Shown here: positions 39,689 to 61,371 of the stretch, piece after piece
Numbering within the stretch: the first letter of the stretch is position 1
Layout of the letters: each line of letters begins with the position of its first letter
From: Archangium violaceum
Lineage (GTDB): Bacteria; Myxococcota; Myxococcia; Myxococcales; Myxococcaceae
Direction: 5' to 3'
NCBI RefSeq assembly: GCF_016859125.1
Contig: NZ_CP069338.1
Location: forward strand, 5,333,501 to 5,397,500
Length of the DNA stretch: 64,000 nucleotides
Translations under genes and position numbers: made by a program
Notes under the pieces: model-generated
Databases searched by the model: none
Seen by the model: only the letters and a program-made list of their open reading frames with translations
What the model was told of the DNA's origin: nothing

Positions 39689-40489
39689 TCACTGCCCGAG
39701 CGACTGGGGCGGTGGCTTCGCGCTGAAGGCGGGCACGTAGCACTTGCCCTGGTATTCGTAGAGCACGTCCGGACATGGGGCTTTCAACTCGTGAGGCGTC
39801 CAGCAAGCACCGATGAGCTCCACCTCGGCGTAGCGGGTGCAGGGAGGGCGCTTCTGGCCTTTGAATGGCTCGCGCGGCAGTGGACGGGCGATCACGGATG
39901 ATTCTCCAGCGTCCGAGGTGTCCACGAGCGTCCCGATGTCGAAGGGGTCTGGAGTCCCGGCTACCGTGGACACCTCGTCGCTGGTAGGGGCGGGCGAGGT
40001 GCTCGCCAGGGGCTCCGGGCCGCTCGGGGGTTGGGACACGGGGGCCAGACGCACCAACGCGAACAGCAGGGCACACACCGCGGCGGCGCTCAACAGGCTC
40101 AGCCCCAAGCGCAAGAGAGGGCGGGGCTCGTAGGGAGAGGGAAGGGCTCGGGCCATGCGGCGAACGCCCTCGAGCATCCCCTCGAAGGTGAACACCAGTG
40201 ACTCCACCGATTGCTTCTCGGGGGACACGGCCCAGGGAGTCTGCTCCACTTGCATGGCGACATAGCGTGCCGAGTCCGAAGAACTGAAGAGCACCCGCCA
40301 GTCCTTCAGGGGGACTTTGTCCTCCTCGGAGGGCTTGAGCACCAGGGCCGTGGCTCCGCTCGTCTCGTGCGAGGCCAGGTAGAGTTCTCCCTGACCGTCA
40401 TCGGACTGCGGCACTTGCTCCTCGAGCCGGTACGGCCCCAGCTGCTCCAATTCCTCCTCGCTGCTCGCCTCGGTCTTCTTCTTGTCCAC
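39689..40489 (-). CDS. Kinase-like membrane protein, copy A
   Basis: 266 residues from a GTG with GAGGAG upstream. The N-terminus (LGPYRLEEQVPQSDDGQGELYLA) resembles the first strands of a Ser/Thr kinase N-lobe, but the glycine loop, VAxK lysine, HRD and DFG are absent. A membrane helix follows (about 126-147), then a Pro/Ser-rich linker and a C-terminal domain with CTRYAEVELIGACW and GKCYVPAF, the same tail style as myxobacterial receptor kinases. It is therefore a kinase remnant or a dedicated pseudokinase, anchored in the inner membrane. Roughly nine in ten residues match copy B (46765-47565). Confidence 0.7.
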   Translation of the reverse strand: MDKKKTEASSEEELEQLGPYRLEEQVPQSDDGQGELYLASHETSGATALVLKPSEEDKVPLKDWRVLFSSSDSARYVAMQVEQTPWAVSPEKQSVESLVFTFEGMLEGVRRMARALPSPYEPRPLLRLGLSLLSAAAVCALLFALVRLAPVSQPPSGPEPLASTSPAPTSDEVSTVAGTPDPFDIGTLVDTSDAGESSVIARPLPREPFKGQKRPPCTRYAEVELIGACWTPHELKAPCPDVLYEYQGKCYVPAFSAKPPPQSLGQ

Positions 40490-46764: not shown

Positions 46765-47565
46765 TCACAGTCCGAGCGACTGAGGCGGCGGCTTCGCGCT
46801 GAAGGCGGGCACGTAGCACTCTCCTTGGTACTCGTAGAGGACGTCCGGGCACGGGGCCTTGAGCTTGTGCGGCGTCCAGCAAGCACCGATGAGCTCCACC
46901 TCGGCGTAGCGGGTGCAGGGAGGGCGCTTCTGGCCTTTGAAGGGCTCGCGCGGCAGCGGACGGGCGAGCACGGATGATTCTCCAGCGTCCGAGGTGTCCA
47001 CGAGCGTCCCGATATCGAAGGGGTCCGGAGTCCCGGCTACCGTGGACACCTCGTCGCTCATGGGGGCGGGCGAGGTGCTTGCAAGGGGCTCCGGGCCGCT
47101 CGGCGGTTGAGGCACGGAGGCCAGATGCACCAGCGCGAACACCAGGGCACACACCGCGGCGGCGCTCGCCAGGCTCAGCCCCAAGCGCAAGAGAGGGCGG
47201 GGCTCGTAGGGAGAGGGAATGGCGCGGGCCATGCGGCGAACGCCCTCGAGCATCCCCTCGAAGGTGAACACCAGTGACTCCACCGATTGCTTCTCGGGGG
47301 ACACGGCCCAGGGAGTCTGCTCCACCTGCATGGCGACATAGCGCGCCGAGTCCGAAGAACTGATGAGCACCCGCCAGTCCTTCAGGGGGACTTTGTCCTC
47401 CTCGGAGGGCTTGAGCACCAGGGCCGTGGCTCCGCTCGCCTCGTGCGAGGCCAGGTAGAGCTCTCCCTGACTGTCTGCGGACTGCGGCACCTGCTCCTCG
47501 AGCCGGTACGGCCCCAGTTGCTCCAGTTCCTCCTCGCTGCTCGCCTCGGCCTTCTTCTCGTCCAC
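46765..47565 (-). CDS. Kinase-like membrane protein, copy B
   Basis: 266 residues, the same length and layout as copy A (39689-40489): degenerate kinase N-lobe, membrane helix at about 126-147, Cys-containing C-terminal domain ending SAKPPPQSLGL. Differences from copy A are scattered substitutions (KKTEA/KKAEA, HETSG/HEASG, VRLAPV/VHLASV), consistent with a duplication under protein-level constraint. GTG start at 47565. A sigma-factor-like fragment lies upstream on the same strand. ECF sigma genes next to receptor kinases are a known myxobacterial arrangement. Confidence 0.7.
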   Translation of the reverse strand: MDEKKAEASSEEELEQLGPYRLEEQVPQSADSQGELYLASHEASGATALVLKPSEEDKVPLKDWRVLISSSDSARYVAMQVEQTPWAVSPEKQSVESLVFTFEGMLEGVRRMARAIPSPYEPRPLLRLGLSLASAAAVCALVFALVHLASVPQPPSGPEPLASTSPAPMSDEVSTVAGTPDPFDIGTLVDTSDAGESSVLARPLPREPFKGQKRPPCTRYAEVELIGACWTPHKLKAPCPDVLYEYQGECYVPAFSAKPPPQSLGL

Positions 47566-51901: not shown

Positions 51902-52924
51902 TCAGAGGATCTTCATGGAGTGGGCCGCGAAGTTCTCGGTCCCCGATTGGGAGAGGTAGTCCTTGAGCGCCTTGCGCGCCTCCGCCTCGCTCGTATACGC
52001 CGAGTCGGGGCCGAGCGTCTTGTCCGGCCGGACGGCCTGGAAATCCTGCAGCTTGTCCCCCACGAGCGGATGGAAGACCACGGGGCGATTGGGCGAGAAC
52101 TGCTCGATGGTCTGGAGCTCCTGGCGATAGAGCACGCTCTTCGGATCATGGGTCCGCATGAAGGCGTGCGCCGGCCCCTGCGGGTTCTGCCTCACGAACT
52201 CCTCGGAGAGGTGGTTCCACATCGGCGTGACGGCCTTGGGGTCCTTGTAGATCTCCAACCCCGAGAGCGCCCGGCCGGCCGGTGTGCTCTCCAGCGTGGT
52301 GTACCCCTTCAGCTGGGCGTGCTTGCTCACGTCGTAGCCGCCCGACCAGAGCGCCAGCGGTCCCTGGCCCTGCTCGATGCGCAGGTAGGGTCCCATCTCC
52401 TGGGCGACCTTCTCGTAGTGCGGGTTGGAGGTGTCCGGCCTGGGCTTGTCCGGGGTGAAGGGCGTGGTCCGGCTCTCCTTCACGTCGGCCCGGATCTGCT
52501 CCTGGCGCTTCACGCCGTGGAGGATGTCGCCCCAGACCTCCGCGCTCTTCGCATCGCTCATGCCGAGCGCGGAGAAGGCCTTCTGGAACGCCGGTGCGTC
52601 GGGGTGCGAGAGGGGTGAATTCAGGTCGAGCACCTGGGCCGCGGTGGTGCTGTGCTTGCCCGACGACAGGGCCGGACCCATGGCCTGCTCCACCGGGATG
52701 CGCGGCTCCGCCAGGGTTCCCGCCAGCTCCGGGCGTGGGTTGGGTGCCAGGGGCCGCGGCGGGCGTTCGAAGCTGTCGGCGCTCTTCGGAATGCCGTGGG
52801 TCTGGGGCCCGCTCGGGCTCCGGAGGGGGTTGGGGCTCGCCGGAGTCCTGTCCGGAGTGGAGCTGGGCCGGATGCTCGGCGTCTGGGTGAGGTTCACTCG
52901 GGGCGGCCGGAAGCGGATGGTCAT
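51902..52924 (-). CDS. CD38-like ADP-ribosyl cyclase / NAD glycohydrolase toxin candidate
   Basis: 340 residues, no signal peptide. The first 85 residues are Pro/Ser/Thr-rich, followed by a helical middle. From residue 191 the four landmarks of the ADP-ribosyl-cyclase fold appear in order and spacing: Trp193 (ALWSGG), Glu212 (TTLESTPAGR), Trp236 (PMWNHLSEEF) and catalytic-type Glu269 (SVLYRQEL). Enzymes of this fold destroy or cyclise NAD+ and are used as polymorphic toxins. ATG 52924; longer starts read into the shared promoter module. It has a sigma-54 promoter (52960-52975). No immunity gene is adjacent; only an ACT-domain gene lies beyond the module. Confidence 0.65.
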   Translation of the reverse strand: MTIRFRPPRVNLTQTPSIRPSSTPDRTPASPNPLRSPSGPQTHGIPKSADSFERPPRPLAPNPRPELAGTLAEPRIPVEQAMGPALSSGKHSTTAAQVLDLNSPLSHPDAPAFQKAFSALGMSDAKSAEVWGDILHGVKRQEQIRADVKESRTTPFTPDKPRPDTSNPHYEKVAQEMGPYLRIEQGQGPLALWSGGYDVSKHAQLKGYTTLESTPAGRALSGLEIYKDPKAVTPMWNHLSEEFVRQNPQGPAHAFMRTHDPKSVLYRQELQTIEQFSPNRPVVFHPLVGDKLQDFQAVRPDKTLGPDSAYTSEAEARKALKDYLSQSGTENFAAHSMKIL

Positions 52925-52959
52925 GGGGGCACCGTTGTTCGGAGATGTGAAGGCAGCAG

Positions 52960-52975
52960 TGCAGCGCCCGTGCCA
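52960..52975 (-). promoter_or_regulatory. Sigma-54 promoter of the cyclase-toxin gene
   Basis: Minus-strand TGGCACGGGCGCTGCA against the consensus TGGCACG-N4-TTGCA: one mismatch, with the essential GG and GC 10 bp apart. Expected transcript start about 25 bases before the ATG. Confidence 0.75.
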
Positions 52976-53047
52976 GGGCGGGTGGGCCCGGAGATGAACG
53001 GGATTGCGCGGGTTTACATGCAGGCGGACCCGCGAGAGGGCCCGTGT

Positions 53048-53108
53048 GGTGACCGCCGTCACCGGAGTCCCCTGGTGAGCGGGGTCACCGGTGATGTCCG
53101 CTGTCACC
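53048..53108 (-). promoter_or_regulatory. Activator-site array upstream of the cyclase-toxin gene
   Basis: Palindrome GGTGACCGCCGTCACC (53048-53063), then GGTGAG-N4-GTCACC (53074-53089) and a further GTCACC at 53103. The GTCACC steps are 26 and 19 bp, repeated in the two sister modules. The first site is centred about 82 bp upstream of the -24 element, the place for a sigma-54 enhancer-binding protein. Confidence 0.65.
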
Positions 53109-53133
53109 AGGCGGGCGCCGGGCCCACGCCGGG

Positions 53134-53547
53134 TCAGCCCGGGGACGCGTCGCCGCGCGCGAGCTCGAGGAGCAGCGCCAGGGACTCCTCGGCCCGAGCG
53201 GAGGGCACGAAGAGGTGATCGTGGAAGTACGCCGAGACGGGGTTCACGCTGATGCCCCGGGCGGCCAGCCGATTCGTGATGGCGGCGAGGAATCCCACGG
53301 CCTCGAGGCTGGAGTGGACGGAGAGGGTCACCATCCGGAAGACGGCGGTGTAGGGGAGTCCGGCGGCCTCGGCCTTCTCACGGGAGAGGATGAGGGTGAG
53401 CCCTTCCTCCTCGTGGAAGAGCCCGAGGGGCTCGAGGGGGGCGACCTCGAGCAGGGAGCGCCGGGTGGTGAGGAAGACGAACTCGCCCTCTCTCAGCACC
53501 GGCCTCATCGACCTCAGCAGTACGCCCAGGTTCGTCTCGCCGGGCAT
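53134..53547 (-). CDS. ACT-domain protein (DUF2241-like)
   Basis: 137 residues from ATG 53547. The N-terminal half (LGVLLRSMRPVLREGEFVFLTT) and C-terminal half (FRMVTLSVHSSLEAVGFLAAITNRLAARGISVNPVSAYFHDHLFVP) match the two-ACT layout of DUF2241, a family of small cytosolic proteins that bind amino acids. It is not obviously part of the toxin modules but lies between two of them. Function unassigned. Confidence 0.83.
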   Translation of the reverse strand: MPGETNLGVLLRSMRPVLREGEFVFLTTRRSLLEVAPLEPLGLFHEEEGLTLILSREKAEAAGLPYTAVFRMVTLSVHSSLEAVGFLAAITNRLAARGISVNPVSAYFHDHLFVPSARAEESLALLLELARGDASPG

Positions 53548-53664
53548 GGTGTTGCATCCTCCCTACCCACGAAAGCGTGAGCGGCCGATCCCATACCTGG
53601 AGATCGACCGCTCGAGATAGGGGGCCGGGTGTGGCCCCCTTGTTCGGTGCTTCGGCCCTGGGAC

Positions 53665-54840
53665 TCAGACCTCCGTGGCCCTGGTCATGGACTCCTGAAC
53701 GGCGCCCGCGAGTCCGACCCGAGCCTTCTCCAGAAGGGGCTCGGCCTCAGCGGTCTTGAGGCTCTTCTCCATCAGGGACACGGGCTCCGAGGGCCTGCTG
53801 AGCATCTTCGGCGCAACGTGCCCGGCGTCCACCGGGTTCAGGATCTTGCTCGCCGTGGCGGTGCCCTCGTTCACGAGCCCCTTCACGGTCTCGAGGGCCT
53901 GGGTCGCGGTGTTGATGGCGTTGGCCACCGAGTTGAGGATGTTGCCAAGGCCCGACTGCAGGGAGGCGTCCGGCGACGTCAGGGAGCCGAGGTCAGGGGG
54001 CAGGCCACCGGCGGCGTACGGGTCCATCACCGGCCCACCGGCGAGAGCCGGGGGCAGGCCAGCAGCCGCGTACGGGTCCATCATCGGGGCGCCGGCCATG
54101 GCGTACGGGTCCATCATCGGGGCGCCGGCCATGGCGTACGGGTCCATCATCGGGGCGCCGGCCATGGCGTACGGGTCCATGCCAGCAGCCGCGTACGGGT
54201 CCATGCCAGCAGCGGCGTACGGGTCCATCGCCGGGCCACCGGTCATGGCGTACGGGTCCATGCCGGCAGCGGCGTACGGGTCCATGGGCGGGGCGCCGGC
54301 CATGGCGTACGGGTCCATCATGCCCAGGGCGCCAGGCAGCATGGTGGCCGCCTCGAGGCCCGCGCCAAGGACTCCGGCCGCGCCGCTCGCCACGCCGCCG
54401 ACAACGTCACCCACGGCCCCGAGGCCATTGCCGATACCGTTGCCGATGCCGCCAAAGCCGTTGCCGAAGCCGCCGAAGCCGTTGGGCTTCTTGAGGTTGT
54501 CCAGCGGGTTGCCCGGCTTGAAGCCGTCGAGGTTGAAGTCGGGCTTCTTGCCCGGGAAGTTGCCGTTGATGTCCGGGCGGGGCGAGGGCTTGGGCCCGCT
54601 GTCGGGCTTGATGTCGGGCTTCTTGCCCGGGATGTTGCCGTTGATGTCCGGGCGGGGAGAGGGCTTGGGTCCGCTGTCGGGCTTGATGTCGGGCTTCTTG
54701 CCCGGGATGTTGCCGTTGATGTCCGGGCGGGGCGAGGGCGTGGGCCCGTTGCCGGGCTTGATGTCGGGCTTCTTGGGACCCTTGATGTCGGGGAGGTCGA
54801 GCTTGGGGAACTTGAAGCCTTTGCCGATACGCATGGACAT
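53665..54840 (-). CDS. Pro/Gly-rich repeat protein, copy 1
   Basis: 391 residues (ATG 54840; the ATG at 54834 has better ribosome-site spacing). The N-terminus carries three 25-residue repeats of the form GPKPSPRPDINGNIPGKKPD, a Gly-rich hydrophobic segment follows (NGFGGFGNGFGGIGNGIG then VVGGVASGAAGVLGAG), then about ten copies of a decapeptide MDPYAMAGAP/AAAG, and a helical C-terminus (SLQSGLGNILNSVANAINTATQ). No signal peptide and no known domain. The shape (basic Pro-rich start, hydrophobic middle, tandem repeats) is that of an extracellular or translocated protein. Own sigma-54 promoter at 54909. Near-identical to 55966-57018 except for the C-terminus. Confidence 0.75.
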   Translation of the reverse strand: MSMRIGKGFKFPKLDLPDIKGPKKPDIKPGNGPTPSPRPDINGNIPGKKPDIKPDSGPKPSPRPDINGNIPGKKPDIKPDSGPKPSPRPDINGNFPGKKPDFNLDGFKPGNPLDNLKKPNGFGGFGNGFGGIGNGIGNGLGAVGDVVGGVASGAAGVLGAGLEAATMLPGALGMMDPYAMAGAPPMDPYAAAGMDPYAMTGGPAMDPYAAAGMDPYAAAGMDPYAMAGAPMMDPYAMAGAPMMDPYAMAGAPMMDPYAAAGLPPALAGGPVMDPYAAGGLPPDLGSLTSPDASLQSGLGNILNSVANAINTATQALETVKGLVNEGTATASKILNPVDAGHVAPKMLSRPSEPVSLMEKSLKTAEAEPLLEKARVGLAGAVQESMTRATEV

Positions 54841-54908
54841 ATCTCCTGAGAAGACGGGGGGCTTGGTGCCGAGAGAGTGCGGGGAACGCCTTGACGGGAA
54901 GGCGTTAT

Positions 54909-54924
54909 TGCAGCGCCCGTGCCA
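54909..54924 (-). promoter_or_regulatory. Sigma-54 promoter of repeat protein copy 1
   Basis: TGGCACGGGCGCTGCA on the minus strand, identical to the one at 52960-52975 and 57085-57100. Confidence 0.78.
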
Positions 54925-54996
54925 GGGTTGGCGAACTCGGAGACGAACGTGATTCCGAGGGCTTACGTGGAGGAGGACCCGCGTGAAGGCCCGGGT

Positions 54997-55064
54997 GGTG
55001 ACCGCCGACATCGGAGCTCCCTGGAGAGCGCAGTCACCAGTGATGTCTGTTGTCACCAGTCACC
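54997..55064 (-). promoter_or_regulatory. Activator-site array of repeat protein copy 1
   Basis: GGTGACCGCCGACATC (54997-55012, second half decayed) with further GTCACC at 55033, 55052 and 55059. The first two full steps keep the 26 and 19 bp spacing of the sister modules. Confidence 0.6.
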
Positions 55065-55223
55065 GCGGGACACCGGGTCGTTTGCCGCCCTCTCGGAACC
55101 CGAGGTTTTTGACACCCGCTCACCGGCCACCCTCTCGGACTCCTGCCGGGTTCATGTCACCGCGCCGTGTATCCTTCCCGCCCCTGTTGGGCTCAGGGTC
55201 TCACCTCCATCGAGGTCTCATTC

Positions 55224-55859
55224 ATGCGCATCCTCGGAACGATTGCTGTTTGAGTGGTCGCGTTGCTCGGTCCAGCGGCTCATGCGGATCTGCCCGTCGT
55301 CAAGACGGCGCAGGCGTCCTGGCAGGGCTGCGATTACACGATCAAGGTGTTGCAGGACGTTGATGAGCCCATGCCGCGGCCCCTCTACAGGGTCTCCGTT
55401 CAGAGTGCGGTCGTTTCGCCCGATACGTGCTCGTTGGTGCCCACGACCGTCGAACTGGGGACCTCGATACTCGAGCCGACGATCGCGATCGCGGCCACTG
55501 CCCAGGGACTCGTGGCCGCCTATTCCGGAGGCGAATACGTCAAGTTCGGGATCGGAAGATGGGCCGTCACCCATGTTCATCGCCTGAGCCCGAGCACGCT
55601 GCGGACCCTGCGGCTGGCGGAGCTGGCGGCGGGTTGGACGTCGGCCCCTGGAACCGCCGGAGGGCCGGGGACCGCGGAGGTGGATCAGATCACCATCTAC
55701 CCTTCCCACGTTGAAGTGACGGGCACGCGGAACGGGAACCTGTTCGGCGTGTATCCCAGCTACTCACCCTATCGGTTCGGTGAGGGCACTCACTTCGCCG
55801 CCTTCTACCCTGGCTTCTTCGGGCCGAACCAGCAGCAGCCCGTTCTGTTCATCTATTGA
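55224..55859 (+). pseudogene. Exported protein with a stop codon in its signal peptide
   Basis: ATG 55224 opens MRILGTIAV, then TGA (55251-55253), then the same frame continues VVALLGPAAHADLPVVKTAQASWQ and runs 200 codons to a stop at 55859. Joined, the signal peptide MRILGTIAVxVVALLGPAAHA would be normal with cleavage after AHA. So one base change has probably inactivated an exported beta-rich protein (PTTVELGTSILEPTIAIAATAQ). A restart at GTG 55254 would give a signal without positive charge. It sits between the two duplicated repeat-protein genes, on the opposite strand. Confidence 0.6.
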
Positions 55860-55965
55860 GCCTGTTTGTCTGGAAATGGCGCAGCCCCGCCCGAGATCGT
55901 TCATCGGGCGGGGTGCGCTTGGGTCCTGCGAGGGCACCTTCTCCAGGGCCCTCTTCGCCTGGGGC

Positions 55966-57018
55966 TCAGGCCTGCTCGGTGTTGGAGGCGCCCGCGAGTC
56001 CGCTCCGGGCCTGCGACAGCACGGTCTCGGCGGGCTTGAGGGCCTTCATCAGCTGGGGCTCGGCCTCGGCGGCAACCTTCTTCAGGGTGTCGGTCGCCGT
56101 GGCGGTGCCCCCGTCCACGAGCCCCTTCACGGTCTCGAGGGCCTGGGTCGCGGTGTTGATGGCGTTGGCCACCGAGTTGAGGATGTTGCCAAGGCCCGAC
56201 TGCAGGGAGGCGTCCGGCGACGTCAGGGAGCCCAGGTCAGGGGGCAGGCCACCGGCGGCGTACGGGTCCATCACCGGCCCACCGGCGAGAGCCGGGGGCA
56301 GGCCAGCAGCGGCGTACGGGTCCATCATCGGGGCGCCGGCCATGGCGTACGGGTCCATCATCGGGGCGCCGGCCATGGCGTACGGGTCCATGCCAGCAGC
56401 GGCGTACGGGTCCATGCCAGCAGCGGCGTACGGGTCCATGCCGGCAGCGGCGTACGGGTCCATGGGCGGGGCGCCGGCCATGGCGTACGGGTCCATCATG
56501 CCCAGGGCGCCAGGCAGCATGGTGGCCGCCTCGAGGCCCGCGCCAAGGACTCCGGCCGCGCCGCTCGCCACGCCGCCGACAACGTCACCCACGGCCCCGA
56601 GGCCATTGCCGATACCGTTGCCGATGCCGCCAAAGCCGTTGCCGAAGCCGCCGAAGCCGTTGGGCTTCTTGAGGTTGTCCAGCGGGTTGCCCGGCTTGAA
56701 GCCGTCGAGGTTGAAGTCGGGCTTCTTGCCCGGGAAGTTGCCGTTGATGTCCGGGCGGGGCGAGGGCTTGGGCCCGCTGTCGAGCCTGGTGTCGGGCTTC
56801 TTGCCCGGGATGTTGCCGTTGATGTCCGGGCGGGGCGAGGGCTTGGGCCCGCTGTCGAGCTTGGTGTCGGGCTTCTTGCCCGGGATGTTGCCGTTGATGT
56901 CCGGGCGGGGCGAGGGCGTGGGCCCGTTGCCGGGCTTGATGTCGGGCTTCTTGGGACCCTTGATGTCGGGGAGGTCGAGCTTGGGGAACTTGAAGCCTTT
57001 GCCGATACGCATGGACAT
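55966..57018 (-). CDS. Pro/Gly-rich repeat protein, copy 2
   Basis: 350 residues, same layout as copy 1 (53665-54840): 25-residue Pro-rich repeats (here with TKLDS/TRLDS variants), Gly-rich hydrophobic segment, about eight MDPYA... decapeptides, helical end. Identity to copy 1 is near complete up to the C-terminal 60 residues, which differ (KKVAAEAEPQLMKALKPAE). The DNA, including the upstream module, is also nearly identical, so the duplication is recent or maintained by gene conversion. ATG 57018; ATG 57012 has better ribosome spacing. Confidence 0.75.
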   Translation of the reverse strand: MSMRIGKGFKFPKLDLPDIKGPKKPDIKPGNGPTPSPRPDINGNIPGKKPDTKLDSGPKPSPRPDINGNIPGKKPDTRLDSGPKPSPRPDINGNFPGKKPDFNLDGFKPGNPLDNLKKPNGFGGFGNGFGGIGNGIGNGLGAVGDVVGGVASGAAGVLGAGLEAATMLPGALGMMDPYAMAGAPPMDPYAAAGMDPYAAAGMDPYAAAGMDPYAMAGAPMMDPYAMAGAPMMDPYAAAGLPPALAGGPVMDPYAAGGLPPDLGSLTSPDASLQSGLGNILNSVANAINTATQALETVKGLVDGGTATATDTLKKVAAEAEPQLMKALKPAETVLSQARSGLAGASNTEQA

Positions 57019-57084
57019 ATCTCCTGAGAAGACGGGGCTTGGTGCCGAGAGAGTGCGGGGAACGCCTTGACGGGAAGGCGTTAT

Positions 57085-57100
57085 TGCAGCGCCCGTGCCA
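57085..57100 (-). promoter_or_regulatory. Sigma-54 promoter of repeat protein copy 2
   Basis: TGGCACGGGCGCTGCA on the minus strand. The distance from the GC of the -12 element to the ATG at 57018 is about 68 bases, so the predicted 5' leader is about 55 bases. Confidence 0.78.
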
Positions 57101-57172
57101 GGGTTGGCGAACTCGGAGATGAACGTGATTCCGGGGGGTTCCGCGGAGGCAGGGCCGCGCGAGGGCCCGGGT

Positions 57173-57233
57173 GGTGACCGCCGTCACCGGAGCCCCCTGG
57201 GGTGCGCAGTCACCAGTGATATCTGCTGTCACC
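57173..57233 (-). promoter_or_regulatory. Activator-site array of repeat protein copy 2
   Basis: Palindrome GGTGACCGCCGTCACC (57173-57188) with GTCACC at 57209 and 57228, steps of 26 and 19 bp as in the sister modules. The array ends beside the stop codon (57236) of the flavoprotein gene. Confidence 0.65.
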
Positions 57234-57235
57234 AG

Positions 57236-58750
57236 TCACGGCAGGTAGCGCCCGGGGGCGAGGATGCCGTGGGGATCCAACGCGGCCTTGAGCGTCCTCA
57301 GCACCCTCGGCGAGTCATCCTCCGGAGCGATGGGGAGCACGGGCGACTGGATGCCCAACCGCGCCGGGTAGTAGCCCGCTTCACCCAGGGCCTGCTGCAG
57401 CGCATGGTGGCACGCCATCGCGCGAGCGTCCTCTCCCTCCACCTCCCGGTCATAGATGATCGCCACCACCAGGTAGGCACACCGCGCCGAGACGCCCAGC
57501 ACACACAGGTTGGGCTCGAAGCCGAACCGGAGCGGCAGGGGCTCGGCGAGCGCCAGCGCCGTCTCCACGTGGGAGCCCGTCATCGGCACGGCGCACGACA
57601 GCCAGATGAAGCCGCATCCGTCGCGCTCCGGCTCCGGTACCTCGGGTGGGGGCGAGCGCTTGCGCCAGTACATCATCCGAAGGTTGCGCGCCGAGGGCAC
57701 CTGCCGGAGCGTCCCCGGCCCCACCTCCTCTTCTCGCATACAAGAGAGGGTGGGCATGGCCTCCCCCAGGACGTGCTCCACCCGCTCCTGCGCCGCCTGG
57801 GCCTGGGCCTCGCTCGGGGCCTCGAGCACGAAGCTCAGGTGCCAGGGCGAGACGTTCAACCTGGCGCGCAGCTTCGCGCGGTGCGACTCCGGCAGCGGCG
57901 TGAGCCCCCGGGTCTCCTCCCACGGGTACTGGCCGAGCACGGACATCACCTTGTAGTCGTTCCACAGCGAGAAGGCCTCGCGCAGGGTGCCCTCCATCCG
58001 AAGCAGCCGCAGCCGCTCCACCACCGGGCCCAGCTGGGCGGGGTCCTCCAGCACGCCCGACACCAGCCGGAGGCAGGCCGCTCGCGGCGCCAGCCAGAAG
58101 GTCATCCGCGTCACGACCCCCAGGTTCGACTGGCTGAAGAGCCCATCCAGGCCGGGGCCCGCGCCCCAGCGCAGCACGGACGCCGCCTGGGCATGGGGGT
58201 AGCGCCCGGGCCCGGTGCGAAGGCACTCGCCCGTGGGCAGCACCACCTCCAGGCCACACACGTACTGGAAGATGTCCCCGTGAGGCCCCGTCCCGTCTCC
58301 CCGCTCGAGCGCGTTGCCGATGAGGCTCGACTGGGGTGGCCCGCCGATGGTGGCCAGCTGCAGCCGCGAGCCCCTCTCCTCCAGGAAGGCATGCGCCTGT
58401 TCGAACGTGACGCCCGGCTCCACGGTGAGGTACCCCAGCTCCTCGTCGAACTCGAGCACGCGATTCATCCGGCCCAGTTCCAGCAGCACGCCGCTGCGCG
58501 CCGGCACCCGCGAGCCATAGCCCTGGTTGCGCCCGGCGCTCACCGGGGTGACGGGGATGCGCATCTCCTGGGCGATGCGCAGGCAGGCGCGCACCTCCTC
58601 GGTGCTTCCGGGACGCAGCACCGCACCCACATCCTGGGTGGTGGCGAAGGTCGCCGTGCGCGCCCGGACGAGCGTCGACTCGTCGGTGAGCACGTGGTCC
58701 TCGCCCAGCTCCCGTCGCCACGCCTCGAGCGCCTCCCGCAGCCGCTCCAT
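57236..58750 (-). CDS. FAD-linked oxidase of the VAO / 4-cresol dehydrogenase class
   Basis: 504 residues. An N-terminal PCMH-type FAD-binding domain (about 45-230; VLRPGSTEEVRACLRIAQ, TPVSAGRNQGYGSR, TIGGPPQSSLIGNALERG) is followed by a cap domain and a C-terminal segment ending DPHGILAPGRYLP, the classic end of VAO/cresol-dehydrogenase flavoproteins. It would oxidise a phenol or alcohol with transfer of electrons to oxygen or a cytochrome. No signal peptide. Start ATG 58750 with GGAGGAG upstream. It is transcribed divergently from the 58975 operon. Confidence 0.85.
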   Translation of the reverse strand: MERLREALEAWRRELGEDHVLTDESTLVRARTATFATTQDVGAVLRPGSTEEVRACLRIAQEMRIPVTPVSAGRNQGYGSRVPARSGVLLELGRMNRVLEFDEELGYLTVEPGVTFEQAHAFLEERGSRLQLATIGGPPQSSLIGNALERGDGTGPHGDIFQYVCGLEVVLPTGECLRTGPGRYPHAQAASVLRWGAGPGLDGLFSQSNLGVVTRMTFWLAPRAACLRLVSGVLEDPAQLGPVVERLRLLRMEGTLREAFSLWNDYKVMSVLGQYPWEETRGLTPLPESHRAKLRARLNVSPWHLSFVLEAPSEAQAQAAQERVEHVLGEAMPTLSCMREEEVGPGTLRQVPSARNLRMMYWRKRSPPPEVPEPERDGCGFIWLSCAVPMTGSHVETALALAEPLPLRFGFEPNLCVLGVSARCAYLVVAIIYDREVEGEDARAMACHHALQQALGEAGYYPARLGIQSPVLPIAPEDDSPRVLRTLKAALDPHGILAPGRYLP

Positions 58751-58809
58751 GTCTCCTCCTTGCTTTCGCGGCGCTGGATCGCGACCGCCTCGCCCCGCCG
58801 AGTCTACTG

Positions 58810-58846
58810 GTGGTGACAGCTGTCACCACCTCGAACGGCAGTCACC
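58810..58846. promoter_or_regulatory. 20-bp perfect palindrome and activator site
   Basis: GTGGTGACAGCTGTCACCAC (58810-58829) is a perfect 20-bp palindrome containing GGTGAC-N4-GTCACC. A further GTCACC lies 19 bp on, at 58841, the same step as in the three minus-strand modules. It is centred about 106 bp upstream of the -24 element of the promoter at 58924. Confidence 0.7.
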
Positions 58847-58923
58847 AGGGGCAGCGGGGCCGGCCGGGGCTTTCGCCGGGAGGCTCCAGAGGGAAGCCGT
58901 GGCTCTTCCCTCTCGGGAAGGGT

Positions 58924-58939
58924 TGGCACGAGACCTGCT
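58924..58939 (+). promoter_or_regulatory. Sigma-54 promoter of the 58975 operon
   Basis: TGGCACGAGACCTGCT fits TGGCACG-N4-TTGCW with one mismatch. Expected transcript start near 58951, about 24 bases before the ATG at 58975. Confidence 0.72.
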
Positions 58940-58974
58940 GTGGGTCGTGTCCGTTCCTTCTCTTCGAGGCCCCC

Positions 58975-60297
58975 ATGACCGCCCCTATCTCCGGTAACCG
59001 TCCCATCATGCTCCCCCAGAGCCAGACGACGTCTGACGTTGTCGCCCAGAAGGCCGTCCTGCCCCTGGCTCTCGAGCAGCAGTCCGCGCCTGTCGAGGCG
59101 AAGAAGCGGCTGGCGATGCCGCAGGACATCACGGCGTTCGAGCAGATGTCCGGCGGGTCCGCGCGCGGCGCCATGCCCGCCCTGCTCGGAAGCGTTGCGG
59201 ACAACCCCCTCCAGAAGAGCCTGGGGAAGCAGACCCTCATCAACACCCACCTCGAGGTGGCCGCCAAAGCCCTGGCCACCGCCCAGGCGGGCTTCGAGCT
59301 CGCGGCGGGCATCGCCTCGCAGCAGTTCGCCGGCCTGCGGAACGAGGCCGCGGGCGCCCTCTCGGGATTGTCGGCCCGGATGCCCCTGGACATCGCCAAC
59401 AGCGTCGCTGGCGCCATCAACAGCGGTACGGATCTGCGCCAGCTCGATGTCCTCCAGGGCATCGCTCATACCCAGGGTCCCCTGGCCGCGGGCAACCTCG
59501 AGGCGGGCCAGTACAGCGCCGACCAGTTGGGGCAGTACGGCGACCAGGGCAGCTACGGTGACTACGGCGGCTACGGTGAGACCGTCGACCCGATGAGCCA
59601 GTTCGGCGGCGTGGCCGACCTGGCCGGCGGCGTGGCCGACCTGGCCAGCGGCGTGGCCGACCTGGGTGATGCGTTCAGGAAGCCGAGCTCCAAGCCCTCC
59701 GCGCCGGAGTCCAAGCCCTCCGCGAAGCCCTCCGCCCCGGACGCCAAGCCCTCCGCGCCGGAGTCCAAGCCCTCCGCGAAGCCCTCCGCGCCGGAGTCCA
59801 AGCCCTCCGCCGAGAAGCCCTCCGCCCCGGACGCCAAGCCCTCCTCCGCGGCGGGCAAGGCCGATGACCTCGCCAAGAGCCTGCTCAAGACGGGTGGCAA
59901 GGCCGCCAGCAGGTTCGTCCCGGGCCTCAATGTCGCCATGGCGGGCCTCGACATCGCCAACGCCGTCAAGACCATCAAGGACCCCAATGCGAGCCTCGGC
60001 GACAAGATCACCTCGGGCATCGTCGCCGGAGGCTCGGCGCTCGCCGCGACCAACATCCCCATCGTCTCCCAGATTGGTGGAGCCATCTCGACGGGCGCCT
60101 CCGTCGCGGGCGAGGTGGTGAAGAACTTCGGAGGCGCCATCAAGGATGGCGCCAAGAAGGTCGGCGAGGGCATCAAGCATGCCGCCGAGAAGGTCGGCGA
60201 GGGCATCAAGGACACCGCCGAGAAGGTCGGCAAGGGCATCAAGGACACCGCCGAGAAGGTCGGCAAGGGCATCAAGGACTTCTTCAAGGGCTGGTAG
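58975..60297 (+). CDS. Repeat protein with C-terminal amphipathic 11-mer array
   Basis: 440 residues, no signal peptide. An N-terminal helical domain (about 30-175) is followed by a Gln/Gly/Tyr-rich stretch (QYSADQLGQYGDQGSYGDYG), a repeated GGVADLA segment, eight KPSAPES/KPSAPDA linkers, a hydrophobic helical domain (SRFVPGLNVAMAGLDIANAVKTIK..., GGSALAATNIP) and four 11-residue repeats AEKVGKGIKDT ending FFKGW. The last array is encoded by 33-bp DNA repeats (60151-60285) and forms a cationic amphipathic helix, as in membrane-active peptides. It shares the operator/sigma-54 layout with the minus-strand genes; 30 bp downstream lies a trigger-factor-like chaperone. Confidence 0.72.
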   Translation: MTAPISGNRPIMLPQSQTTSDVVAQKAVLPLALEQQSAPVEAKKRLAMPQDITAFEQMSGGSARGAMPALLGSVADNPLQKSLGKQTLINTHLEVAAKALATAQAGFELAAGIASQQFAGLRNEAAGALSGLSARMPLDIANSVAGAINSGTDLRQLDVLQGIAHTQGPLAAGNLEAGQYSADQLGQYGDQGSYGDYGGYGETVDPMSQFGGVADLAGGVADLASGVADLGDAFRKPSSKPSAPESKPSAKPSAPDAKPSAPESKPSAKPSAPESKPSAEKPSAPDAKPSSAAGKADDLAKSLLKTGGKAASRFVPGLNVAMAGLDIANAVKTIKDPNASLGDKITSGIVAGGSALAATNIPIVSQIGGAISTGASVAGEVVKNFGGAIKDGAKKVGEGIKHAAEKVGEGIKDTAEKVGKGIKDTAEKVGKGIKDFFKGW

Positions 60298-60327
60298 TTC
60301 CACCTCCGCGTTCCCGAGGGTCACTCC

Positions 60328-61371
60328 ATGAGCTCCATCGTGATTCCGCAGCTGGCCGCGTCGTACGAGCAGGACGATTCGTCGGTGTTGATGTCCCTTC
60401 CCCAGGTGGAGGCGCCCTCGCTCGAGGGGCTCTCCGTCACGATCTCCCCCCCGGAGGCGTTCACCCCGGAGCAGGTCCAGGAGCGCTTCCTGGAGCTGGC
60501 GCGTCCCCTGGCCACCGAGCGCTACCGCTATCCCAGCGAGAAGCTGGCGTGGAGGGATGAGATCCTGTTCGACATCGTGGGCTACAGCCACGGCAAGCTC
60601 ATCCCCTTCAGCCTGCGCACCGACGTGTGGATGACCCTGGCGCCCGAGCCCCTGCTGCCCGGGCTCTACGAGTCGCTCGTGGGCCGCTCGCCCCGGGAGA
60701 ACATCACCGTGGAGCTCACCCTGCCCGCCGACTACCCCGTGGAGTCCCTGCGGGGGGCGCCCGCGCGCTTCACCATCCAGCTCAAGGGGGCGCGTGAGGT
60801 GACCTACCCCGAGCTGAGCAGCCCCGCCTTCCTCCGGGCCTTCGGCTACGGCGACACGCTCGCGGAGGCCACGCGTGCCGTCCTCCGTCAGATGGAGGCG
60901 GAGGCCAAACAGCTGTTGCTGTGCCAGGTCCAGCGGCAGGTGCTGGCCACGGTGGCCTCGCGCACCCGGGTGAAGGTCCCCGCCGCGCTCATCGATGAGG
61001 AGATCCGCCGCCGTTGGAGCGCCAGCGAGGGCCGCACGATGAGCGAGCTGGGCTTCGACGAGGCTCTCCGGGAGGAGTCGCTCCGCGCGTGGCTGCGGGA
61101 CGCGTCGACGCGGGCCGAGGTGGAGCTGCGGCTGCGCATCGCCCTGGCCCTGGGCGCCATCAGCAAGCGGGATGGGCTGACCCCGAGCCGCGAGAAGGTG
61201 GAGAAGATCATCCTGGACGAGGCCAGGGCCTCCGGACTGCCGGTGGAAGAGGTGGTCGCCGCCCTGAGCGCCGAGCCCCAGAACCTGGCTCGCATCGATC
61301 AGGTGGCCTGGCACCTCACGGCCGTGGACCACGTCATGAGCCGGGCCAAGGTCCACATGGCGGCGGCCTGA
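60328..61371 (+). CDS. Trigger-factor-like FKBP chaperone
   Basis: 347 residues. After a short N-terminal tail comes an FKBP-like domain (about 60-170; EILFDIVGYSHGKLIPFSLRTDVWMTLAPEPLLPGLYESLVG, PADYPVESLRGAPARFTIQL) and a long helical C-terminal trigger-factor-type domain (about 180-335; VPAALIDEEIRRRWSASEGRT...). The ribosome-docking signature of true trigger factor is not seen, so it is a specialised paralogue. In the same sigma-54 operon as the 11-mer repeat protein, 30 bp apart, so it probably keeps that protein soluble until export. Confidence 0.72.
   Translation: MSSIVIPQLAASYEQDDSSVLMSLPQVEAPSLEGLSVTISPPEAFTPEQVQERFLELARPLATERYRYPSEKLAWRDEILFDIVGYSHGKLIPFSLRTDVWMTLAPEPLLPGLYESLVGRSPRENITVELTLPADYPVESLRGAPARFTIQLKGAREVTYPELSSPAFLRAFGYGDTLAEATRAVLRQMEAEAKQLLLCQVQRQVLATVASRTRVKVPAALIDEEIRRRWSASEGRTMSELGFDEALREESLRAWLRDASTRAEVELRLRIALALGAISKRDGLTPSREKVEKIILDEARASGLPVEEVVAALSAEPQNLARIDQVAWHLTAVDHVMSRAKVHMAAA

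What the first reader, a model, noticed from the sequence alone, without database searches (positions are those of the whole stretch)
51902..61371. A co-regulated effector set under sigma-54 promoters with shared enhancer sites
Three minus-strand genes and one plus-strand operon each carry a near-consensus sigma-54 promoter (52960, 54909, 57085, 58924; same single C-for-T mismatch). Upstream of each lies an array of GGTGAC/GTCACC sites at the same 26/19-bp steps, in the position of a sigma-54 activator site. The products (NAD-consuming toxin candidate, two repeat proteins, an amphipathic-repeat protein with its own chaperone) have no signal peptides yet look exported. Seen: the promoters, sites and spacing. 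Inferred: one activator switches on one effector system.
Basis: partly seen in the sequence, partly recalled or inferred. Interest (0 to 1): 0.85.

Follow-up and report, generated by a model that had tools for sequence, protein, structure and literature searches.

The report
Shared switch for predator's effector genes
In this predatory soil bacterium, genes for weapon-like proteins scattered round the chromosome share one DNA control signature and a probable common switch protein, which gives a list of candidate killing proteins to test.

Summary
The window is from an Archangium-type genome (12.68 Mb). The observation largely holds: all four sigma-54 promoters are there. But the three minus-strand ones are copies of one another, and the 26/19-bp site steps are theirs alone.

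The set belongs to a chromosome-wide regulon also seen in related species. GGTGAC-N4-GTCACC arrays lie before effector-like genes. A sigma-54 promoter lies 35-200 bp from 54 of 66 intergenic arrays, 0 of 26 coding palindromes and 23 of 624 random intergenic points. Distances are phased at 11 bp.

An FHA-type sigma-54 activator gene has such sites at its 3' end in the five Archangium genomes examined; it is the likely switch. Targets are mostly leaderless, with Ser/Pro-rich N-termini. D[GST]F[DEQSA] occurs in 14 of 30 target families against 6 of 604 others. Domains include SLT, M4, M91, exotoxin-A-like and transglutaminase-like.

The window's chaperone is a trigger-factor relative without ribosome-binding domain, directly behind a partner gene in 20 of 20 loci examined. 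The window toxin is weakly ADP-ribosyl-cyclase-like.

The delivery machine is not identified. Needleless T3SS*/Kil, whose effectors a 2023 review calls unknown, is my leading guess; T6SS is not excluded.

The parts
51902..52924 (-). Leaderless effector candidate, 340 aa: Pro/Ser-rich N-terminus and C-terminal domain with invariant LALWSGG, TLEST and RTHD blocks, possibly ADP-ribosyl-cyclase-like
   Evidence: C-terminal homologues in 13 of 147 genomes of the class, this one included
52766..52777 (-). D[GST]F motif (DSFE, residues 50-53) of that protein; DGFD or DGFE at the same place in four orthologues (L168-L171)
   Evidence: not kept as such in the more distant L172-L174
52960..52975 (-). 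sigma-54 promoter TGGCACGGGCGCTGCA
53048..53108 (.). array of three GGTGACN4GTCACC sites (0, 1, 2 mismatches), nearest centre 94 bp from the -12 element
53665..54840 (-). Leaderless repeat protein, 391 aa (KPDI.../MDPYA repeats), N-terminus MSMRIGKGFKFPKLDLP
   Evidence: no Pfam match; family with L055 of G004
54909..54924 (-). sigma-54 promoter TGGCACGGGCGCTGCA
54997..55057 (.). array of degenerate sites (2 mismatches each), copy of the array at 53048
55966..57018 (-). Paralogue of the 53665-54840 repeat protein, 350 aa
   Evidence: weak sub-cut-off Pfam matches only
57085..57100 (-). sigma-54 promoter TGGCACGGGCGCTGCA
57173..57233 (.). one perfect palindrome plus two weak sites (3 mismatches), copy of the other two minus-strand arrays
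58812..58846 (.). perfect palindrome GGTGACAGCTGTCACC and an intact GTCACC half-site 19 bp on
58924..58939 (+). sigma-54 promoter TGGCACGAGACCTGCT
58975..60297 (+). Leaderless 440-aa protein, N-terminus MTAPISGNRP, hydrophobic stretch and amphipathic KKVGEGIK repeats; candidate client of the chaperone behind it
   Evidence: residues about 304-397 similar in two other TF-partner genes of this genome
60328..61371 (+). Trigger-factor homologue without the N-terminal ribosome-binding domain; putative dedicated chaperone
   Evidence: PF05698 6e-17; TIGR00115 102-401/410, 124.7 bits, cut-off 180.2; directly behind a same-strand gene in 20 of 20 loci, this one included

Best explanation
The four transcription units belong to a chromosome-wide sigma-54 regulon. 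SHOWN BY SEQUENCE: arrays of a GGTGAC-N4-GTCACC palindrome stand upstream of -24/-12 promoters (47 of 54 nearest-site distances are 85-133 bp), on one face of the DNA helix, before genes in this genome and in other Archangium and related species; the downstream proteins mostly lack Sec signals, have Ser/Pro-rich N-termini and often a D[GST]F motif. INFERRED: the FHA-domain sigma-54 activator at G000:C1 about 11331561-11332829, whose gene has such an array at its 3' end, binds the arrays when its FHA domain senses a phosphorylated partner, and loops to sigma-54 polymerase. This switches on an arsenal of proteins (NAD-consuming, peptidoglycan-cutting, protease and other toxins, plus membrane-active protein/chaperone pairs) that leave the cell by a Sec-independent contact-dependent machine to kill or digest prey. 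INFERRED, weaker: the N-terminal region with the D[GST]F motif is the export or docking signal. The trigger-factor-like protein, having no ribosome-binding domain, keeps the hydrophobic partner protein soluble until export.
For: Joint array-promoter matches exceed reversed controls: 13 v 2 and 8 v 1. A promoter with at most 2 mismatches lies 35-200 bp from 54 of 66 intergenic arrays, 0 of 26 coding palindromes and 23 of 624 random intergenic points. Distances phased at 11 bp, R=0.64, n=50; 0 of 2000 jittered sets as high. EBP has FHA, AAA+ and HTH_8 domains and sites at its 3' end in G000, G002, G003, G004 (a single palindrome there) and G005. Palindrome density is 1.58/Mb in 14 genomes with best EBP match E<1e-230 and 0.57/Mb in 32 with E>1e-140; Spearman 0.55 over 92 genomes. 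D[GST]F[DEQSA] in 14 of 30 target families v 6 of 604, p 3e-16; orders DF[GST], F[GST]D and [GST]DF not significantly enriched. Sec-like N-terminus in 3 of 59 targets v 210 of 713. Domains: Exotox-A_cataly, SLT, M4, thaumatin, M91, transglutaminase-like, alpha-lytic protease prodomain. Chaperone behind a partner gene in 20 of 20 loci.
Against: No transcript, binding or secretion data. EBP relatives (71-79% identity) in other genera mostly lack GGTGAC arrays beside them: only L070 of the 32 loci L063-L094 has one, so the pairing is shown mainly in Archangium. In G036 the nearest array in the fetched stretch is about 3 kb from the EBP and in G032 two genes lie between. No arrays in the T3SS and T6SS neighbourhoods fetched. 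16 of 30 target families lack the motif, and L172-L174 of the window toxin's own family lack it in that form. A few targets have Sec signals (L047, L049, L165 by rule, L161 by eye) and one family of five is an MshEN-type protein. In this genome 4 of 15 intergenic arrays lack a promoter with at most 2 mismatches. My two by-eye classes of N-terminus did not hold up as rules: crude regexes matched only 9 and 5 of 30 families (57 and 21 of 713 background). Phylogeny is not corrected for in the density correlation.
Confidence: 0.75

Rival explanations
1. The regulon is real, but the products are T6SS cargo or contact toxins used against competitors or kin, not predation effectors of T3SS*/Kil.
For: T6SS_VasE (TssK) is found in 57 of 88 family genomes, among them the large-genome genera that also carry a close EBP; this genome has four match rows, three places listed. 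The target L014 has a 113-aa second gene that could be immunity, also seen in L185.
Against: No PAAR, VgrG, Hcp or Rhs domain in the 29 of 59 targets scanned with Pfam. No arrays in the T6SS neighbourhoods fetched. Four genomes with T6SS_VasE (G013, G014, G045, G080) have no close EBP. The genes beside the window toxin are an ACT-domain protein and a sulfotransferase, not an evident immunity gene.
Confidence: 0.25
2. The products act inside the predator (development, sporulation, envelope remodelling), regulated by an FHA activator as in fruiting-body development; the Ser/Pro-rich N-termini are just disordered tails.
For: FHA activators of Myxococcus were described in fruiting-body development (Jelsbak 2005; I saw only its entry in the reference list of PMC6971385; the paper is not held). 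The repeat proteins have no Pfam match over cut-off.
Against: The targets are rich in toxin and lytic domains and in a shared N-terminal motif, which internal enzymes would not need.
Confidence: 0.15
3. The array-promoter pattern in the window is a local duplication artefact, not a regulon.
For: Three of the four upstream regions are copies of one sequence.
Against: The same pairing occurs at other loci here and in other species.
Confidence: 0.02
4. Another sigma-54 activator, not the FHA protein beside the M4 gene, binds the palindromes; the adjacency only reflects the M4 gene's own array.
For: The genome has many EBP genes: 11 matches at E<=1e-80 among 19 scored of 146 candidates. The array lies 3' of the EBP gene and serves the next gene.
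Against: Sites beside the EBP are kept in the five Archangium genomes examined and in one Corallococcus (L070) where the next gene is a different effector-like gene. Relatives beside altered sites differ in the recognition helix (three cases, sites read by eye).
Confidence: 0.2

Closest known systems
FHA-domain enhancer-binding proteins and the sigma-54 regulon of Myxococcus xanthus (Jelsbak et al. 2005; only a reference-list entry seen)
   Same: Same kind of protein: FHA + Sigma54_activat + HTH_8 here
   Different: Described for development. I found no report of a GGTGAC effector regulon, DNA site or N-terminal motif in the listings of searches (open-licence full texts only)
Kil Tad-pilus and needleless T3SS* contact-killing system of M. 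xanthus (PMC12075869 and PMC10433427, passages read)
   Same: Effectors are expected and 'unknown at this point' (PMC10433427). Two FHIPEP (SctV) genes in this genome
   Different: No array in the stretches round this genome's two FHIPEP genes; no direct link to the regulon shown. Kil genes were not searched for
Trigger factor (TIGR00115 / PF05698)
   Same: Matching C-terminal chaperone domain
   Different: No N-terminal ribosome-binding part, below the tig cut-off; follows a candidate client gene
sigma-54 and HrpR/S control of type III effectors in Pseudomonas syringae (recalled; of PMC5263251 only the listing and start of abstract seen)
   Same: sigma-54 activator ahead of an effector regulon
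   Different: There it acts through an intermediate sigma factor HrpL (recalled); here most effector genes have their own sigma-54 promoter and enhancer array
ADP-ribosyl cyclase / CD38 family and a solved 'ADP-ribosylcyclase toxin' (9ro8)
   Same: Weak profile matches aligning the W and TLE(S/N)T region
   Different: E 0.12-0.95 only, one of the four matches is labelled ribonuclease; no cyclase family in Pfam; fold model too poor to decide

Membership tests
sigma-54 (RpoN) promoter | GG at -24 and GC at -12 with fixed spacing, TGGCACG-N4-TTGC | tested here: met
   All four in the window at 1 mismatch; the scan fixes GG and GC, so only the other positions are informative: over 54 array-linked promoters T 53, C 51, A 53, C 47 at positions 1, 4, 5, 6
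sigma-54 (RpoN) promoter | Dependence on rpoN and mapped start | not testable with these tools
   Needs RNA data and a mutant
Enhancer site of a sigma-54 activator | Inverted repeat upstream, repeated, at looping distance and phased | tested here: met
FHA-type sigma-54 activator (candidate regulator) | FHA + AAA+ sigma-54 interaction + HTH domains | tested here: met
   PF00498 2.1e-15, PF00158 6e-65, PF02954 1.3e-5
FHA-type sigma-54 activator (candidate regulator) | Binds the GGTGAC palindrome | not testable with these tools
   Indirect only: adjacency and density
Type III secretion substrate | N-terminus without Sec signal, Ser/Thr/Pro-rich (recalled definition) | tested here: met
   Ser 14.1 v 7.0 %, Pro 13.3 v 6.4 %, Thr 8.0 v 5.7 %, Leu 7.7 v 12.3 %; Sec-like 3/59 v 210/713
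Type III secretion substrate | Genes linked to or co-regulated with the T3SS apparatus | tested here: not met
   No array in L200-L205 around the two FHIPEP genes
Type III secretion substrate | Apparatus-dependent secretion | not testable with these tools
   Needs mutants and secretomes
T6SS effector | Fusion to PAAR, VgrG, Hcp or Rhs | tested here: not met
   None among Pfam matches of 29 of 59 targets; the other 30 not scanned, separate partners not searched for
Trigger factor (tig) | C-terminal chaperone domain | tested here: met
   PF05698, 62.5 bits v cut-off 22.7
Trigger factor (tig) | N-terminal ribosome-binding domain and equivalog cut-off | tested here: not met
   TIGR00115 match begins at position 102 of 410; 124.7 bits v 180.2
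ADP-ribosyl cyclase / NADase | Family profile match or fold | tested here: inconclusive
   Profile v PDB: 4 matches, E 0.12-0.95: 5bnf 'uncharacterized', 9ouf 'ribonuclease', 9ro8 'ADP-ribosylcyclase toxin', 3gh3 CD38; single-sequence model mean pLDDT 49.3

The most novel reading that the evidence does not exclude
These genes are the missing cargo of the myxobacterial contact-killing machine (needleless T3SS*/Kil): a large, fast-diversifying effector repertoire scattered over the chromosome, held together by one FHA/sigma-54 switch and by a short N-terminal D[GST]F signal read by a common receptor, with trigger-factor-derived chaperones replacing classical T3SS chaperones for membrane-active partners. 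Paralogous FHA activators with altered palindromes would run parallel sub-arsenals.
Probability: 0.35. Interest if true: 0.92.

Novelty: new variant of a known kind. Interest (0 to 1): 0.77.

Why it matters
[quoted passage not shown] A DNA signature that finds effector-like genes wherever they lie turns that into a list to test: 59 array-linked genes in 30 families from the regions fetched, with a candidate master activator and a candidate signal motif. It also suggests that myxobacteria reused trigger factor as a dedicated chaperone by losing the ribosome-binding domain, and that a duplicated FHA activator family diversified its DNA sites along with effector sets.

Tried and rejected
The 3-mismatch pattern search gave 239 against 40 for the control, but its listing was cut after about 100 rows, so only the 0-2-mismatch rows are complete. 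Co-occurrence with secretion systems decided nothing: FHIPEP in 86 of 88 genomes, T6SS_VasE in 57 of 88. T3SS and T6SS neighbourhoods fetched had no arrays. Structure predictions of the toxin domain and the TF-like protein were too poor (mean pLDDT 49.3 and 38.0); Foldseek on the first gave nothing below E 0.59 and is not used. Literature searches showed no report of this regulon in their listings (open-licence full texts only).

Rejected: the idea that all four window promoters are independent (three are copies); the idea that the 26/19 steps are a regulon rule (spacing varies: 19-20, 22-23, 25-26, 34 bp and more); my two by-eye N-terminus classes as rules.

Selection to tell: the 20 regions of G002-G004 were chosen by me out of 50 perfect palindromes, favouring paired ones and GC-centred spacers, so their 19 of 21 with promoters is biased. 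The G032 and G036 regions hold 25 of 26 and 23 of 23 perfect palindromes of those genomes (G032 C68:22401 left out). L061 was dropped as the same locus as L048, and L022 as not an array locus, before the counts. Targets allow 3 mismatches in the promoter; allow 2. Genes were called by my own simple script, not by a standard gene finder, and starts were moved to the first ATG after the promoter where possible. The 11-bp test removes repeats of the same family and distance only.


Full report
SETTING. The window is G000:C1:5333501-5397500 of a 12,677,854-base single-contig genome.

THE OBSERVATION. Upstream lie GGTGAC/GTCACC arrays. Two corrections. The three minus-strand upstream regions align along their whole length and are copies of one another, so the pattern was seen twice, not four times. 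The 26/19 steps are theirs; the plus operon has one full palindrome and a half-site 19 bp on.

GENOME-WIDE TEST. GGTGACN4GTCACC: 22 in the genome against 0 for the reversed pattern. TGGCACGN4YTGC alone is hardly enriched (32 against 25). GTCACC 20-80 bp upstream of TGGCAYN5YTGC: 13 against 2; 81-141 bp: 8 against 1. Of the 13 rows, nine (eight promoters) lie at arrays described here and four do not. In 692,739 bases fetched from this genome, mostly round such sites, 13 clusters scored 18 or more, 12 of them intergenic, against none in 2 Mb of simulated sequence. Regulon loci outside the window: 748642 (L001, DGFD protein; no promoter found), 2428575 (L002, SLT transglycosylase), 5015968 (L021), 5069873 (L004, MshEN c-di-GMP-domain protein), 5611567 (L005, exotoxin-A catalytic-domain relative), 10044659 (L013), 10639705 (L014; its promoter has 3 mismatches), 11022738 (L015, thaumatin-like), 11332910 (L016, M4 metalloprotease) and 11977292 (L024, second site at 11977417). 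An array at 11737259 (L023) has no clear promoter or gene. Eight of the 22 perfect palindromes lie inside called genes, and one intergenic one (L006) has no promoter.

RELATED GENOMES. Regions round palindromes were fetched from G002-G004 (20 chosen by me) and, nearly completely, from G032 and G036 of two other genera. Over all regions, 54 of 66 intergenic arrays have a promoter (at most 2 mismatches) 35-200 bp away pointing outwards. This holds for 0 of 26 coding palindromes and 23 of 624 random intergenic points. By genome: G000 11 of 15, G002-G004 19 of 21, G032 12 of 16, G036 11 of 12; L062 and L070 make up the rest. The distance from the nearest site's centre to the -12 element clusters at about 85-88, 94-100, 106-109, 117-121 and 126-133 bp (47 of 54 in all). 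The 11-bp periodicity has R=0.64 over 50 family-distance pairs, and none of 2000 jittered sets reaches it. This is what helix-face-dependent looping would give.

THE LIKELY ACTIVATOR. The gene just before the M4 gene and its array encodes an FHA + sigma-54 AAA+ + HTH_8 protein. Sites lie at its 3' end in G000, G002, G003, G004 and G005; in G004 one palindrome overlaps the gene's end and the main array follows one gene later. G006 was not examined. In G032 two genes lie between EBP and array, and in G036 the nearest array in the fetched stretch is about 3 kb away. Palindrome density follows the best match to this protein: 1.58/Mb in 14 genomes with E<1e-230, 0.93 in 43 with about 72-81% identity, 1.23 in 3 at 57-60%, 0.57 in 32 below; Spearman 0.55, 92 genomes. 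Phylogeny is not corrected for. Against: of the 32 myxobacterial loci L063-L094 outside Archangium, only L070 (Corallococcus) has a GGTGAC array beside the gene. Some others are followed by effector-like genes with different palindromes, read by eye: GGCGAC-N4-GTCGCC in L066, similar but imperfect in L065, and GGTAAC-like in L081. In these the recognition helix reads DRFYLRK or ARLYVRK instead of DRVYLRK. That suggests relatives with shifted specificity, in three cases only; other loci with a changed helix (L074, L083, L085, L088, L092) showed me no palindrome.

THE TARGETS. 59 array-linked genes fall into 30 families. Three of 59 have a Sec-like N-terminus by a simple hydrophobicity rule, against 210 of 713 other genes; L161 also looks Sec-like by eye. 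N-termini are Ser/Pro-rich and Leu-poor. D[GST]F[DEQSA] occurs in the first 110 residues in 14 of 30 families (20 of 59 proteins) against 6 of 604 families (7 of 713 proteins), Fisher p 3e-16; the orders DF[GST], F[GST]D and [GST]DF give p 0.69, 0.08 and 0.59. The motif was noticed in these same proteins before the test, so the p-value is optimistic. In the window toxin and four close orthologues the motif stays (DSFE, DGFD, DGFD, DGFE, DGFD) while the rest of the N-terminus drifts; the three more distant ones (L172-L174) do not have it in that form. Domains: SLT in L002, L053, L142, L151; M4; exotoxin-A-like; thaumatin; M91 'effector protein' (65.3 bits v 25) in L057; transglutaminase-like in L134; ricin-B lectin with alpha-lytic protease prodomain in L049. 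29 of the 59 were scanned with Pfam, and many of these had no match. One family of five is MshEN-type (only L004 was scanned), and L163 is probably a chance call.

THE WINDOW PROTEINS. 51902-52924: homologues of its C-terminal domain occur in 13 of 147 genomes of the class, five of them partial at E about 1e-9 to 1e-10, with invariant LALWSGG, TLEST and RTHD in ten aligned. A profile of these ten gives four PDB matches up to E 10, at 0.12-0.95: one named CD38, one ADP-ribosylcyclase toxin, one ribonuclease, and one 'uncharacterized protein' that I recall as a CD38. This is a lead, not proof. 53665-54840 and 55966-57018 are paralogous repeat proteins with no Pfam match over cut-off. 58975-60297 and 60328-61371 form an operon. 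The second protein is a trigger-factor relative whose match begins at position 102 of 410 of the tig model, hence without the ribosome-binding domain. Such genes occur in 62 of 88 family genomes at E<=1e-25. In the 20 loci returned, this one included, out of more than 120 listed matches, the gene directly before it on the same strand encodes a protein that looks hydrophobic, glycine-rich or amphipathic from its first 90 residues (by eye). In this genome two more such pairs exist, with no intergenic array in front, and their partners share the stretch around residues 304-397 of the window protein. So the chaperone's client is probably that stretch, and pairs are not always under this switch.

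HOW IT PROBABLY WORKS. Shown: the arrangement. Inferred: the FHA activator, on a phosphorylation signal, binds the arrays and fires the sigma-54 promoters together, perhaps on prey contact or starvation. Inferred: the products are exported without Sec. Which machine is open. This genome has two FHIPEP genes and four T6SS_VasE match rows at three listed places, but none of the stretches fetched round them carries an array. I lean to T3SS*/Kil because of the N-termini, the lack of spike domains in the targets scanned, the M91 effector family and no evident immunity gene beside the window toxin, at about 0.35.

LITERATURE. Passages of PMC10433427 and PMC12075869 say that Kil/T3SS* effectors are unknown or proposed. 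PMC6971385 (passages) cites the 2005 FHA-activator work in its reference list; the paper itself is not held. I saw no report of this regulon, site or motif in the listings of nine searches of open-licence full texts.

Noticed in passing
L005:8801-9646 (G000:C1:5611800-5612645): Array-controlled protein with an exotoxin-A-type catalytic domain (PF09009 2e-24) behind a Ser/Pro-rich N-terminus, suggesting that some targets may be eukaryotic.
   Followed up: no
L065, L066, L081 just after the activator relative: FHA activator relatives are followed by different palindromes (GGCGAC or GGTAAC type, read by eye) and effector-like genes; the recognition helix changes with the site.
   Followed up: partly
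L015:6561-7715, L051:4127-4972, L056:5090-6271, and neighbours of the activator in L067-L069 and L093: A protein with an LSESS-type conserved region recurs, by eye, beside the activator or array-controlled genes; the L015 copy has no NCBIfam match.
   Followed up: partly
L004:6686-7729, L045, L060, L145, L155: A family with an MshEN c-di-GMP-binding-type domain (L004 scanned) is under the same arrays in five genomes, a possible link to second-messenger control.
   Followed up: partly
L064, L087, L092: Contigs labelled Comamonas sp. KCTC 72670 carry activator genes 72-79% identical to the myxobacterial query; the record label looks wrong.
   Followed up: no
window 39689-40489 and 46765-47565: Two 266-aa paralogues, nearly identical over the first 60 residues seen, lie about 6 kb apart on the minus strand.
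   Followed up: no
G000:C1:7129571-7134818 (L200, L201): Beside one FHIPEP gene stand four nearly identical 76-aa genes (MSVNNQANAALASALAPSANGF...) and a protein with KSGKDSFESGAA.
   Followed up: no
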